NCBI RefSeq assembly: GCF_008039615.1
Contig: NZ_VDUZ01000012.1
Location: 62,001-126,000 of the forward strand
Direction: 5' to 3'
Length of the DNA stretch: 64,000 nt
Source of the DNA: Vineibacter terrae
GTDB lineage: Bacteria; Pseudomonadota; Alphaproteobacteria; Reyranellales; Reyranellaceae
The position numbers were made by a program, and so were the translations under genes. Shown here piece by piece: positions 13,286 through 46,645 of this stretch. Within the stretch, counting starts at the first letter, position 1; the number at the start of each line of letters is the position of its first letter. The notes beneath the pieces are model-generated. The model had not been told where the DNA came from. It saw only the letters and a list, made by a program, of their open reading frames with translations, and ran no database searches.

Positions 13286-13371
13286 GTCATCCCGAGCGCA
13301 GCGAGGGATCTCCTGCGGCAATGCGCACGGTGCGCTCTTCGCGGGAGATCCCTCGCTGCGCTCGGGATGAC
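13286..13371. repeat. Family A palindromic element, copy 1
   Basis: An 86-base element that starts GTCATCCCGAGC, ends with its complement GCTCGGGATGAC, and pairs along most of its length around a GCGCACGGTGCGC centre. A short broken half copy lies just upstream at 13268-13285. It stands between two convergent genes. Other copies are at 17832, 26216 (half), 30819, 43062 and 46539. Confidence 0.9.
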
Positions 13372-17831: not shown

Positions 17832-17932
17832 GTCATCCCGAGCGTAGCGAGGGATCTCCTGCGAGGGACGCACGGTGCGCCATTCGCGGGAGATCCCTCT
17901 CCTGAGCCTGTCGAAGGGGCGCTCGGGATGAC
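17832..17932. repeat. Family A palindromic element, copy 2
   Basis: A 101-base copy with the GTCATCCCGAGCGTAGCGAG end and the GCTCGGGATGAC end. The second arm is interrupted by an extra segment, CTCCTGAGCCTGTCGAAGGG, at about 17899-17918. It lies between the divergent MATE and LysR genes, a place where a terminator would make no sense. Confidence 0.9.
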
Positions 17933-30818: not shown

Positions 30819-30903
30819 GTCATCCCGAGCGTAGCGAGGGATCTCCCGCGAATGGCGCACCGTGCGTCCCTCGCAGGAGATCCCTCGCTGCGCTCGGGAT
30901 GAC
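30819..30903. repeat. Family A palindromic element, copy in reverse orientation
   Basis: An 85-base copy. Its asymmetric centre (GCGAATGGCGCACCGTGCGT) is the reverse complement of the centre of the copies at 17832 and 43062, so it is inserted in the opposite orientation. It sits between two plus-strand genes. Confidence 0.9.
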
Positions 30904-37778: not shown

Positions 37779-37948
37779 GACGTTTCCTCCAGGACATGCG
37801 GCGTTCGATGCGCTGCTTGGGCGGTACTGTAGACAGGGTCGCACGGCGACGTCCATGGGATCGCGCGCCGGATCGATCACCGATACGTGGCCACCCTCGA
37901 CGGCCGCAACCGGGCCCTGTACCGTTCCCCGAAATGGGGGAGGCAAGC

Positions 37949-38998
37949 ATGGTAACCGTCTACTTCGCGACCAATCGCCAGAATGAGGGGACGGAACGAT
38001 CACCGAAATTCGGCCGGAATTTCAGCGAGAAGGGCTTAACCTACCTGCGCTTCGGTTCGGCGGAGGTCGAACCGCCAGCGCGCCCCGGCGGACGCTACAA
38101 GGTCACGCAGGTGCACCTGCCGCCAGAAAACATCATCGATGACCCGGACGCGCCCAAGCGCGAGAAGGCCAAGGAGAAGCTCGGCAGCCGCGAAATCTTC
38201 GACGAGCTGCGGGCCTCGATGGTCGCCAACCAGAGCGATGCGCTGGTGCTGATCCACGGCTTCGCCTGCAAGTTCGAGGAGGTGCTGGAGCGCGGCGCCC
38301 AGCTCAAGGAGATCTATCAGCTCGACGAGAAGCCGCTCGAGGTCTTCGTCTTTTCCTGGCCGGCCGACGGCAAGATGATCCCGCTGATTTCCTATCCCCG
38401 GGATCGGGACGATGCGCGCGCATCGGGGCCGGCGATGCAGCGGGCGCTCACGATCCTGCTGCGCTATCTCGCTGGCATCGGCCGCGACGCCCATTGCGAG
38501 CAGAACCTCCATCTCGTGGCGCACAGCATGGGCAACTATGCCTTGCGCCATGCGGTCCAGGCGATCGTCGGCGACCTCGGCGCCAACCGGCTGCCGCGCC
38601 TGTTCAAGAACGTGTTCCTGATGGCGGCCGACGAGGACAACGACAGCTTCGAGCTCGCCTACAAGTTCGCGCCATTGGCCGGCCTTGCCGACGCCATCCA
38701 TGTCTACTTCGCCGCCAACGACGGTGCGCTCAAGATCAGCCGCGACACCAAGAACGCCCAGGATCGCCTCGGCGCCACGGGCCCGCGCACGTTGTCGGAC
38801 CTGCCGCTGAAAGTGACGCTGGTGGACTGCGAGCGGGTCAGCGCCACGACCGATGGCGACCGCGGGCACCAATACTACCGCAATCGCCCCGAGGTGGTGG
38901 CCGACATACGCCAGGTGTTGCGCGGATTGCCGCCGGACGAGGTTCAGTTCCGCGACTGGGTGCCGGAGAAACGGGCGTACCGGATCAGGCCGACATAG
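37949..38998 (+). CDS. Alpha/beta hydrolase (DUF900 family)
   Basis: A 349-residue alpha/beta hydrolase-fold protein. The nucleophile elbow is AHSMG (LHLVAHSMGNYALRH), the oxyanion strand reads LVLIHGFACKFEE, and a conserved MVTVYFATNR N-terminus is typical of DUF900 proteins. No signal peptide is seen. GGGGGAGG precedes the ATG, and the sequence CCCC-GAAAT-GGGG just before it could fold over the ribosome site. Substrate unknown. The VanW-like gene follows 137 bases downstream on the same strand. Confidence 0.82.
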   Translation: MVTVYFATNRQNEGTERSPKFGRNFSEKGLTYLRFGSAEVEPPARPGGRYKVTQVHLPPENIIDDPDAPKREKAKEKLGSREIFDELRASMVANQSDALVLIHGFACKFEEVLERGAQLKEIYQLDEKPLEVFVFSWPADGKMIPLISYPRDRDDARASGPAMQRALTILLRYLAGIGRDAHCEQNLHLVAHSMGNYALRHAVQAIVGDLGANRLPRLFKNVFLMAADEDNDSFELAYKFAPLAGLADAIHVYFAANDGALKISRDTKNAQDRLGATGPRTLSDLPLKVTLVDCERVSATTDGDRGHQYYRNRPEVVADIRQVLRGLPPDEVQFRDWVPEKRAYRIRPT

Positions 38999-42241: not shown

Positions 42242-42319
42242 GGTGTCGCGACCATATCGACTGCGCCGGGCGCGTGCTAGCGTGGACTGATCGTCATCTG
42301 GTTTCGCCGTGGAGGCCGC

Positions 42320-43051
42320 ATGCTTCTGAAAGACCGTGTCGTGCTGATCAGCAACGCCACCAAGTTCACCGGCCGGGCCGCCACGGCGGCGGCGCTGGGC
42401 GAGGGCGCGACCGTCCTCGTGACGGACGAGAGCTTCGCTGACGCCGACAGGCGCAAGGCCTGGGAGAAGGAGTTCAAGGGCAGCACGGCGCTGGCCGAGC
42501 AGGCGCCGGCCGAGATCGGCGCCGCCGTCAAGGCGCGCGGCCGCATCGACGCCCTGGTCAACAACGACGCCTGGCCAGCGACGCGTGCACCGCTGGGCGA
42601 GGCCAAGCTCGACGAGTTCCGCGCCGCCTTCGAGACGATGGTGGTGCGCCCCTTCGCGCTCACGCAGCACATCGCGCCGCTGATGCGCCAGCGCGCCTAT
42701 GGCCGCATCCTCTTCGTCTCCTCGGCAGCGCCGCTGCGCGGCATTCCCAACTATTCAATGTACGTCTCGGCGCGCGCCGCCGCCAACGGCCTGGTGTCGT
42801 CGCTGGCCAAGGAGCTGGGCAAGGACCAGATCACGGTCAATGCGCTGGGCTCCAACTATGTCGAGAACCCCGACTATTTCCCGCCAACGCTGCTGGCCAA
42901 CAAGGAGGCGATGGCGCGCATGACGGCGCAGGTCCCGCTGGGCCGCCTGGGCAAGCCGCAGGAGATCGCCGCCACCATCTGCTTCCTGGTTTCCGAGGGT
43001 GCCGGCTTCATCACCGGCCACGTCCTGCCGCATGCCGGCGGCTGGGCATAA
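42320..43051 (+). CDS. Halohydrin dehalogenase-like protein of the short-chain dehydrogenase fold
   Basis: A 243-residue protein that would be named an SDR oxidoreductase, but three features point to halohydrin dehalogenase (HheC type). The catalytic set is S135-x12-Y148-x3-R152 (SAAPLRGIPNYSMYVSAR), with Arg instead of the SDR Lys. The glycine-rich cofactor motif is replaced by SNATKFTG (residues 11-18), matching the T-x4-F-x-G motif except for Ser at the first position. The segment VTDESFADAD (34-43), the VRPFAL segment at 109-114 and NALGSNYVENPDYF (174-187) align with HheC. Such enzymes turn vicinal haloalcohols into epoxides without NAD(P)H. GGAGGCC precedes the ATG. Confidence 0.8.
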   Translation: MLLKDRVVLISNATKFTGRAATAAALGEGATVLVTDESFADADRRKAWEKEFKGSTALAEQAPAEIGAAVKARGRIDALVNNDAWPATRAPLGEAKLDEFRAAFETMVVRPFALTQHIAPLMRQRAYGRILFVSSAAPLRGIPNYSMYVSARAAANGLVSSLAKELGKDQITVNALGSNYVENPDYFPPTLLANKEAMARMTAQVPLGRLGKPQEIAATICFLVSEGAGFITGHVLPHAGGWA

Positions 43052-43061
43052 CACCGCCAGC

Positions 43062-43146
43062 GTCATCCCGAGCGTAGCGAGGGATCCCCTGCGAAGGACG
43101 CACGGTGCGCCATTCGCGGGAGATCCCTCGCTGTGCTCGGGATGAC
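43062..43146. repeat. Family A palindromic element
   Basis: An 85-base copy with almost perfect arms (GTCATCCCGAGCGTAGCGAG to CTGTGCTCGGGATGAC) around GGACGCACGGTGCGCC. It lies eleven bases after the dehalogenase-like gene and about 150 bases before the phosphofructokinase gene, both on the plus strand. Confidence 0.9.
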
Positions 43147-44435: not shown

Positions 44436-44458
44436 ATTACTCATCAATTGTGAGTAAT
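44436..44458. promoter_or_regulatory. Inverted repeat upstream of a secreted hypothetical protein
   Basis: ATTACTCA and TGAGTAAT form a perfect 8-base dyad with a 7-base spacer, 21 bases before the ATG at 44479. A TTGACT (-35-like, 44423-44428) lies just upstream, so the dyad would overlap the promoter. It is AT-rich in a GC-rich context and looks like a repressor site. Confidence 0.5.
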
Positions 44459-44478
44459 TGATCACACAAGAGGCCTCC

Positions 44479-44964
44479 ATGGTGCTTCCCTATTTCCGGC
44501 TGGCGGCGCTCGGGGTGGTGGTATCCGGTATTCTTTCGGTCCCGGCGCCGGCGCGGGAGCGGACCGTCGCCGCCCTTTCCGCCGTCGGTTTTCCGATCGT
44601 CGGCGGCTCGACGGTCGAAATGTCGCATGTGCGTCCCGCCGGCGCCGCGGCGGCGCCGGCGTCGGCGTCGGTCCATGATGCTGCCACGGCGCTGAGCCGG
44701 GCCGGCAAGTGGTCGACGGCAGGCGTCGTGGTCACGGGCGCGGTGGCGACGCTGGTGCTGCGCGATGCCAGCGGCGCGATGCAGGCCAGCCTGATCGTGC
44801 CGGCGCGGGCGATCACGGCCTCGGGGCTGCGGGCCGGCGATGCCGTGCGCACCACGGCGACGGAAGCCGGCACGATCCTGCACCGCGACGGGCGGGTGCT
44901 GGCCTTTGTCGCCGCCGATGACCAGGACCATCTCGTGCAGCATGACGCGCTCGTGGTCCACTGA
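44479..44964 (+). CDS. Hypothetical secreted protein
   Basis: A 161-residue protein with an N-terminal signal sequence (MVLPYFRLAALGVVVSGILS, likely cleavage after PAPA). The rest is rich in Ala, Thr and Val, with an internal stretch ASGLRAGDAVRTTATEAGTI, and has no recognised domain. GAGGCCTCC precedes the ATG. The DUF2145 gene follows within 14 bases and is probably co-transcribed. The promoter region holds a clear inverted repeat. Confidence 0.6.
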   Translation: MVLPYFRLAALGVVVSGILSVPAPARERTVAALSAVGFPIVGGSTVEMSHVRPAGAAAAPASASVHDAATALSRAGKWSTAGVVVTGAVATLVLRDASGAMQASLIVPARAITASGLRAGDAVRTTATEAGTILHRDGRVLAFVAADDQDHLVQHDALVVH

Positions 44965-45769: not shown

Positions 45770-46645
45770 TCACCCGCCGCATTTCGGGGTGGCGAAGGCG
45801 TTGAGCTCCTTCACGTCGGCCCGCCAGACGATGCCTTCGCGCCGGAACGTGAAGCGCGCGATCACACCGCTCTCGTGCAGCTCGAAGGTCGACTCCATCC
45901 AGTCGCTGAGCGCCCTGGAGGTCTGCTTCAGCGTCCAGGCCCTGCCACGCAGCAGCGGCGAACTGATCCGCGGCGCCGGCGGCTTCAGGGCCGGCAGGGC
46001 CGCCGCCCGCGCCACGGTGACATCGGCTGCGGCATAGAAGCGGCCCAGCTCAATGGTGCGCAGCGCGAACGGACCGCCCGCCGTGTCGGGATCGCTGCTG
46101 CTGAGCGCATCGATCAGCTTGGCGCGCAGCGCCACGGGCAGCAGCGTGCCGGCCGGCAGGTCGACCTTGCGCGGCAGCTTGTCGGACTTGACGTCGAGCG
46201 TGCCGGCGCCGTCGGCGCCGAGCACGACCGTGCCGCGGGCTTCCTCGCCGCGGGCGCCGACGCGATAGCGGGCCTCGTATTGCAGTATCCGCCCGTCGGG
46301 CTTCTCGCTGAACTTGGTGCCCTCCTGCCAGGACTCCATCCGGGCGCCGGTGCGCCCGAGGCTGTACAGCAGGGCGCTGCTGTAGTCCCAGCTCTCGCAG
46401 GTCTTGCTCAGGCTGGCCGACATCTGGCCTTCCGCCTTGGTCTCGGCGGGCGGCTTCTCGACCGTGATCTGGTAGCTGATCGCATGCCCCTGGATGTCGG
46501 CGGCCTGCGCCGGCAGCGCCGCGGCAAAGAACAGTCCTGTCGTCCCGAGCGCAGCGAGGGATCCCCTGCGAAGGGCGCACCTCGCATCATCCGCAGGAGA
46601 TCCCTCGCTGCGTTCGGGATGACAGGAGGGCTCGAGAATCCGCAT
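45770..46645 (-). CDS. eipB: EipB-family (DUF1849) cell-envelope integrity protein with repeat-derived N-terminus
   Basis: A 291-residue protein of the EipB family, periplasmic beta-spiral proteins of alphaproteobacteria needed for envelope stability. Family marks are ISYQITVEK, the CESWDYSS segment with the first conserved Cys, LDVKSDKLPRKVDLPAGTLLPVAL, and the closing NAFATPKCGG with the second Cys. The signal peptide (RRGSLAALGTTGLFFAAALP, cleavage after AQA) is encoded largely by a family A palindrome at 46539-46623: residues CHPERSEGSP to about SLAALGTT are repeat sequence. The ATG at 46645 has only a weak ribosome site. Confidence 0.8.
   Translation of the reverse strand: MRILEPSCHPERSEGSPADDARCALRRGSLAALGTTGLFFAAALPAQAADIQGHAISYQITVEKPPAETKAEGQMSASLSKTCESWDYSSALLYSLGRTGARMESWQEGTKFSEKPDGRILQYEARYRVGARGEEARGTVVLGADGAGTLDVKSDKLPRKVDLPAGTLLPVALRAKLIDALSSSDPDTAGGPFALRTIELGRFYAAADVTVARAAALPALKPPAPRISSPLLRGRAWTLKQTSRALSDWMESTFELHESGVIARFTFRREGIVWRADVKELNAFATPKCGG
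46539..46623. repeat. Family A palindromic element inside the eipB coding sequence
   Basis: An 85-base copy (GTCGTCCCGAGCGCAGCGAG to GCTGCGTTCGGGATGAC) lying wholly within the 5' part of eipB and read through in frame on the minus strand. The centre differs from the other copies (CACCTCGCATCATCC), so it is a diverged member. Confidence 0.9.

What the first reader, a model, noticed from the sequence alone, without database searches (positions are those of the whole stretch)
42320..43051. Probable new halohydrin dehalogenase hidden as an SDR protein
The protein has S135-x12-Y148-x3-R152, the HHDH catalytic signature, with Arg replacing the SDR Lys. Its nucleotide motif is replaced by S-x4-F-x-G, close to the T-x4-F-x-G of known members. 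Several other segments (VTDESF, VRPFAL, GxNY) line up with HheC. The Ser at the first motif position would be a variation on the published pattern. These enzymes are rare and useful in making epoxides and beta-substituted alcohols.
Basis: partly seen in the sequence, partly recalled or inferred. Interest (0 to 1): 0.8.

Follow-up and report, generated by a model that had tools for sequence, protein, structure and literature searches.

The report
Halohydrin dehalogenase of a Reyranella-like bacterium
The gene encodes an enzyme that very probably removes halide from halogenated alcohols to make epoxides; it is a new member of a known enzyme family, and close relatives, one with a solved structure, occur in most sequenced bacteria of the same family.

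Summary
Window 42320-43051 (+) encodes 243 aa with S11-x4-F16-x-G18 and S135-x12-Y148-x3-R152. Sequence, tree and predicted fold place it with halohydrin dehalogenases (HHDHs), apart from NAD(P)H-binding SDRs. The closest solved structure is 6A41 ("Dehalogenation enzyme"), 68% identical; HheA and HheC are at 38% and 36%. S135, Y148 and R152 are invariant in 51 aligned sequences, the window's included. Of 24 SDR paralogues read from the same genome, none shows either HHDH motif.

It is not an isolated discovery. An orthologue was found in 48 of 51 high-quality genomes of the bacterial family, and 6A41 is 98% identical to one of the family's copies. Ser in motif 1 is a genus-level change; the same change left HheC active, and natural variants at this position are in print. 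Pfam and NCBIfam recognise only SDR families.

The open point is biological: the gene is near-core, under purifying selection, and no pathway partner was recognised beside it. That suggests a native role rather than recent pollutant degradation. Activity is inferred, not tested.

The parts
42320..43051 (+). halohydrin dehalogenase gene, 243 aa, SDR fold without the cofactor motif
   Evidence: ORF; phmmer 6A41 E 6.1e-105; tree; predicted structure pLDDT 93.5 and fold search
42350..42373 (+). codons 11-18: motif 1, S11-N-A-T-K-F16-T-G18 (nucleophile/halide pocket), in place of the glycine-rich SDR motif
   Evidence: translation; alignment with HheC; role of the motif from PMC11976700 passages
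42722..42775 (+). codons 135-152: motif 2, S135-x12-Y148-x3-R152 (catalytic triad)
   Evidence: invariant in 51 of 51 aligned sequences, the window's included
42311..42315 (+). GGAGG, ribosome-binding-site-like, 4 bases before the start codon
   Evidence: read directly in the sequence
43062..43146 (.). dispersed palindromic repeat forming a hairpin just behind the stop codon; possible transcript end (inference), not part of the enzyme
   Evidence: fold -73.4 kcal/mol, z -11.26; 618 exact arm matches in the genome, 0 for the reversed control

Best explanation
The gene encodes a functional, cofactor-independent halohydrin dehalogenase, probably of the A/C side of the family. By analogy with HheC, Ser135 holds the hydroxyl of a vicinal haloalcohol, Tyr148 (made more acidic by Arg152) takes its proton, the alkoxide displaces the neighbouring halide to close an epoxide, and the halide leaves into a pocket lined by motif 1 (Ser11, Phe16, Gly18) where SDRs hold NAD(P)H. 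The reverse reaction would open epoxides with halide, azide, cyanide, nitrite and similar anions. Shown here: sequence motifs, their conservation, phylogenetic position, predicted fold, purifying selection. Inferred: catalysis, substrate, pocket, tetramer, physiological role.
For: phmmer against the PDB: the 10 best distinct sequences are all named dehalogenases or halohydrin epoxidases, 6A41 at E 6.1e-105, the other nine (HheC, HheA and 8OXF) at 3.2e-39 to 8.1e-34; the first FabG-type SDR (4NBU) follows at 1.9e-24. Identity: 6A41 68%, HheA 38%, HheC 36%, HheB 31%. Tree: the nine SDR paralogues stand against all 47 HHDH and HHDH-like rows at 100/99, and the six solved HHDH chains are one side of a branch in 100% of 200 bootstrap trees; the window is inside a 100/98 clade with 6A41. 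AlphaFold2 model pLDDT 93.5, pTM 0.91; Foldseek rank 1 6A41 with TM 0.95, ranks 2-15 HheA, HheC and 8OXF chains, FabG at 16; VIA-align Z 36.4 for 6A41, 32.0 for the next. S135, Y148, R152 invariant in 51 of 51. dN/dS 0.077-0.090 for the three pairs of congeneric copies (NG86). HheC T7S keeps activity: kcat 1.37 against 1.84 per second on 1,3-dichloro-2-propanol (PMC11976700 passages). Three epoxide-hydrolase (EHN) homologues lie elsewhere in the genome, able in principle to use the epoxide.
Against: No activity data. The strict published motif T-x4-F/Y-x-G is missed at one residue, and T7S in HheC lowered kcat/KM from 4.11 to 1.70. None of the three EHN homologues lies on the window's contig. 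The label of 6A41 is its depositors'; a search for a paper naming it gave none.
Confidence: 0.87

Rival explanations
1. An ordinary NAD(P)H-dependent SDR whose motifs have drifted.
For: Pfam and NCBIfam see only SDR families (PF13561, PF00106; best NCBIfam 138 bits, under its cut-off of 215); overall fold is SDR-like.
Against: In all 80 loci the HHDH motifs stand in place of the SDR ones; 0 of 24 SDR paralogues show them; the tree separates it from SDR paralogues at 100/99.
Confidence: 0.04
2. An HHDH-fold enzyme whose native reaction is different, for example ring-opening of a cellular epoxide by an anion or another lyase-type step; haloalcohol turnover would be a side activity. This overlaps with the best explanation, which speaks of what the enzyme can do, not of its native substrate.
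For: Near-core in the family, one match per genome in 63 of the 64 genomes with one (the other has a second, 115-residue fragment); convergent with nrdB in 19 of 60 family/order loci; purifying selection; no telling partner among the neighbours identified. The 2016 review leaves other physiological functions open (PMC4989007 passages).
Against: The catalytic residues of the HHDH reaction are present; a conserved context says nothing about chemistry; HHDHs in print open epoxides with many anions, so both activities may coexist.
Confidence: 0.3
3. A catalytically dead relative kept for a structural role.
For: Motif 1 departs from the strict published pattern by Thr to Ser.
Against: Triad invariant; Ser at this place retained activity in HheC and HheG; dN/dS 0.077-0.090.
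Confidence: 0.03

Closest known systems
PDB 6A41, 'Dehalogenation enzyme' (98.4% identical to locus L013 of the same bacterial family)
   Same: 68% identity over the whole length, same triad, nearly same length (244 against 243 aa), Foldseek TM 0.95, same clade
   Different: 6A41 has the canonical Thr in motif 1; the window has Ser
HheA (PDB 4Z9F; HheA2 1ZMO)
   Same: 38% identity (4Z9F), both motifs, no C-terminal extension, Foldseek TM 0.91
   Different: Thr in motif 1; on a long branch; grouping with the window's clade only 82/85
HheC (PDB 1PWX, 3ZN2), Agrobacterium radiobacter AD1
   Same: 36% identity, both motifs, DESF, RPFAL and G-x-N-Y segments
   Different: Thr in motif 1; HheC has a C-terminal extension with Trp249 (PMC4989007, section 4 read), while the window protein ends at AGGWA
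Parvibaculum / Rhodobiaceae HHDH-like proteins (HheA3 of P. lavamentivorans is named in the 2016 review; the loci here were not compared with it)
   Same: about 47-49% identity, both motifs
   Different: Thr in motif 1; nrdB not beside the gene in the flanks held
HheB and HheD2 (PDB 4ZD6, 7B73)
   Same: triad and aromatic-x-Gly motif
   Different: separate branch (100/99); 31% identity (HheB) and 37% over 184 aligned residues (HheD2)

Membership tests
Halohydrin dehalogenase (HHDH) | Motif 2, S-x12-Y-x3-R catalytic triad | tested here: met
   S135, Y148, R152; invariant in 51 of 51 aligned sequences
Halohydrin dehalogenase (HHDH) | Motif 1 with aromatic-x-Gly in place of the glycine-rich SDR nucleotide motif | tested here: met
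   F16-x-G18, no G-x3-G-x-G
Halohydrin dehalogenase (HHDH) | Thr at the first place of motif 1 (strict T-x4-F/Y-x-G). I treat it as diagnostic, not defining, because PMC11976700 reports natural HHDH variants at this place | tested here: not met
   Ser11; also Ser in the two congeneric copies L058 and L059, Thr in the other 78 of 80. HheC T7S and HheG T13S are active in print (passages)
Halohydrin dehalogenase (HHDH) | Placement with known HHDHs and apart from SDRs in a tree | tested here: met
   100/99 split, where the SDR side was 9 paralogues of the same genome picked from the 20 used (split 99 there); no SDRs of other organisms and no G-type HHDH were included
Halohydrin dehalogenase (HHDH) | Closest fold matches are HHDHs | tested here: met
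   Foldseek ranks 1-15; by VIA-align Z the margin over SDRs is clear only for 6A41
Halohydrin dehalogenase (HHDH) | Halide/nucleophile pocket instead of NAD(P)H site, seen in three dimensions | not tested
   model coordinates were not measured; only sequence motifs and fold match
Halohydrin dehalogenase (HHDH) | Halide release from haloalcohols, epoxide opening | not testable with these tools
   needs purified protein
Halohydrin dehalogenase (HHDH) | Homotetramer | not tested
   single chain predicted only
HheC subtype | C-terminal extension with Trp249 | tested here: not met
   protein ends at the AGGWA segment
Classical NAD(P)H-dependent SDR | T-G/A-x3-G/A-x-G and S-x(10-14)-Y-x3-K | tested here: not met
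   both replaced; glycine motif seen in 19 of 24 and Lys triad in 23 of 24 paralogues

The most novel reading that the evidence does not exclude
In Reyranellaceae a halohydrin dehalogenase is a near-core, vertically inherited housekeeping enzyme with a native substrate (a natural halohydrin or a cellular epoxide) not yet identified, and one genus has shifted motif 1 from Thr to Ser, tuning its nucleophile pocket.
Probability: 0.35. Interest if true: 0.55.

Novelty: new member of a known kind. Interest (0 to 1): 0.35.

Why it matters
HHDHs are useful catalysts for epoxides and beta-substituted alcohols. The copies here add a lineage with natural Ser (and, in other relatives, Trp) in motif 1, which a strict search with T-x4-F/Y-x-G would miss. 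The near-core distribution gives a direct handle on the open question of what HHDHs do in bacteria that do not live on industrial haloalcohols: a knock-out in a cultured Reyranella or Enhydrobacter would test it.

Tried and rejected
Rejected: ordinary SDR (tree, motifs); recent plasmid-borne pollutant gene (1 plasmid record matched in PLSDB at E 1e-25, Microbacterium, 38% over 87% of the query, annotated haloalcohol dehalogenase; the gene here is near-core and often beside nrdB); phage-borne gene (6 phage records at E 1e-15, the 5 listed at 30.7-33% identity and without annotation; not followed).

Led nowhere: a paper naming 6A41 (none); papers naming halohydrin dehalogenase and Reyranella (none) or Reyranella and dehalogenase (two; listing and abstract starts seen, other subjects); the 2014 mining paper PMC4249193 is not held. 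The two natural variants at the Thr position (refs 14 and 62 of PMC11976700, titles seen) were not read, so I do not know which residue they carry. G-type HHDH entries were seen only in the hit list and are not in the tree. Neighbours pointing to a pathway were sought: 7 representatives of conserved neighbours of relatives were run against Pfam (ABC1 kinase, Dfp flavoprotein, a 3-hydroxyisobutyrate-dehydrogenase-like protein, a GNAT acetyltransferase, an ABC permease, a family 5 solute-binding protein, an alpha-amylase); none is telling, and many clusters (which counted overlapping mechanical ORFs, some on the wrong strand) were not identified. Flanks of relatives were not searched for epoxide hydrolases.

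Full report
What is there. The ORF at 42320-43051 (+) is intact, 243 aa, ATG start with GGAGG just before it. Of the 98 other SDR-homologous places in the genome the best 25 were examined; one gave no match. Of the 24 left none shows either HHDH motif (four are fragments in which motif 1 cannot be read), 23 have the Lys version of the triad and 19 the glycine-rich motif.

What it is related to. Against the Protein Data Bank the ten best distinct sequences are all dehalogenases or halohydrin epoxidases, led by 6A41 at E 6.1e-105; the first FabG-type SDR has E 1.9e-24. Pairwise identity is 68% to 6A41, 38% to HheA, 36% to HheC, 31% to HheB. Pfam sees two SDR families and no NCBIfam model among the 25 shown of 208 reaches its cut-off, so routine annotation would probably call it an SDR.

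Tree. With the window, 40 relatives, six solved HHDH chains and nine SDR paralogues (picked from 20), the HHDH side is split from the SDR side at 100/99; a quick tree of 77 rows with 20 paralogues gave 99. The window sits with the two congeneric copies (100/100) inside a clade with 6A41 (100/98). The tie to HheA and HheC is only 82/85, and those two have long branches, so the subtype (A/C side rather than B/D) is likely and not settled. SDRs of other organisms and G-type HHDHs were not in the tree. The C-terminal extension that marks HheC (PMC4989007 section 4) is missing.

Fold. The AlphaFold2 model from 51 aligned sequences has mean pLDDT 93.5 and pTM 0.91. Foldseek ranks 6A41 first (TM 0.95) and HheA, HheC and 8OXF chains at 2-15, before FabG at 16. 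VIA-align gives Z 36.4 for 6A41; below that HHDHs and SDRs are nearly tied (32.0 to about 30), so the fold supports but does not decide. The pocket itself was not measured.

Conservation. S135, Y148, R152 and G18 are invariant in the 51 aligned sequences. Motif 1: of 80 genome-contig loci 78 have Thr and 2 Ser, the two being the congeners L058 (Reyranella sp. CPCC 100927) and L059 (SYSU D60007), 92% and 90% identical to the window. Over 106 loci from two searches, which overlap in some genomes, 100 are T-x4-F-x-G, 3 S-x4-F-x-G and 3 T-x4-W-x-G, all with the S-Y-R triad. The third Ser case (L162) lies outside the window's clade, so Ser seems to have arisen at least twice. For the three pairs of Ser-type genus copies NG86 dN/dS is 0.077-0.090; YN00 failed for one of the three.

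What the Ser means. PMC11976700 (abstract, passages and two of three parts of the reference list seen) reports that in HheC and HheG only Ser replaced the Thr with detectable activity. HheC T7S had kcat 1.37 against 1.84 per second and kcat/KM 1.70 against 4.11 on 1,3-dichloro-2-propanol, and E 57 against 22 on epichlorohydrin. The same paper notes two natural variants at this position. So the Ser is compatible with activity and variation at this place is not unprecedented.

Distribution. In the bacterial family 64 of 75 genomes have a match at E 1e-60 or better, 48 of 51 of those at least 90% complete and at most 5% contaminated; of four genomes of the genus three have it and the fourth (87% complete) does not. 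In a draw of 385 genomes of the class 32 have a match at E 1e-50, five of them from this family, the window's own included. Names come from the record titles: mostly Reyranella, some Enhydrobacter, many unnamed metagenome assemblies. The gene is convergent with nrdB downstream in 19 of 60 family/order loci within the flanks held (14 of the 39 with at least 7.9 kb downstream), including L117, which matches the contig of the genome from another family of the order (G037), and in 0 of 20 more distant loci. In the window nrdB is about 3.6 kb downstream. This points to long vertical inheritance. The neighbours identified give no pathway: in the window a divergent pyridine-nucleotide oxidoreductase, a phosphofructokinase, nrdAB and, further off, a DUF900 alpha/beta hydrolase; in relatives those listed under Tried and rejected. 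Three EHN epoxide-hydrolase homologues are on other contigs.

How it most likely works. By the scheme of HheC (PMC4989007 section 4): Ser135 binds the substrate hydroxyl, Tyr148 is the base, Arg152 lowers its pKa, the halide leaves into the motif 1 pocket, and an epoxide forms; the reverse opens epoxides with anions. All steps are inferred from homology.

Verdict. The finding is right in substance: a probable HHDH that general libraries call an SDR. It is a new member of a known kind, with a solved close relative. The part worth following is why a whole bacterial family keeps it.

Noticed in passing
window 43062-43146; also 13288-13369, 30821-30901, 46541-46621 and a single arm at 17834: A dispersed palindromic repeat (arm CATCCCGAGCGNAGCGAGGGATC, paired arms about 51-59 bases apart start to start) forms a very stable hairpin behind the HHDH stop codon; 618 exact arm matches in the genome, 0 for the reversed control. 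No exact arm match in the congeneric loci L058 and L059.
   Followed up: partly
L140, L141, L143 (N-terminal motif): Three HHDH-like proteins of one lineage have Trp in place of Phe/Tyr in motif 1 (T-x4-W-x-G), with the S-Y-R triad intact; outside the published fingerprint.
   Followed up: no
L162: Ser at the Thr place of motif 1 in a lineage away from the window's genus.
   Followed up: partly
L134, L080, L092, L106: Record titles (Anaerolineae, Asaia bogorensis, Caenispirillum bisanense) do not seem to fit the Reyranella-like or alphaproteobacterial HHDH they carry; perhaps mis-binned or mislabelled metagenome assemblies.
   Followed up: no
window 44458-44964: ORF of 168 aa directly behind the phosphofructokinase gene, conserved in the two congeners (57-69%), with no Pfam match at E 0.001.
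   Followed up: no
window 37796-38998: Alpha/beta hydrolase of the DUF900 family (E 1.9e-28), present near the HHDH in congener L058 (92%) but not seen in L059.
   Followed up: no
family/order loci L058-L117, for example L062, L066: In 28 of 60 loci a match to a peptide-type ABC permease begins within 400 bases behind the HHDH gene; a possible hint to a substrate, or only a neighbour.
   Followed up: no
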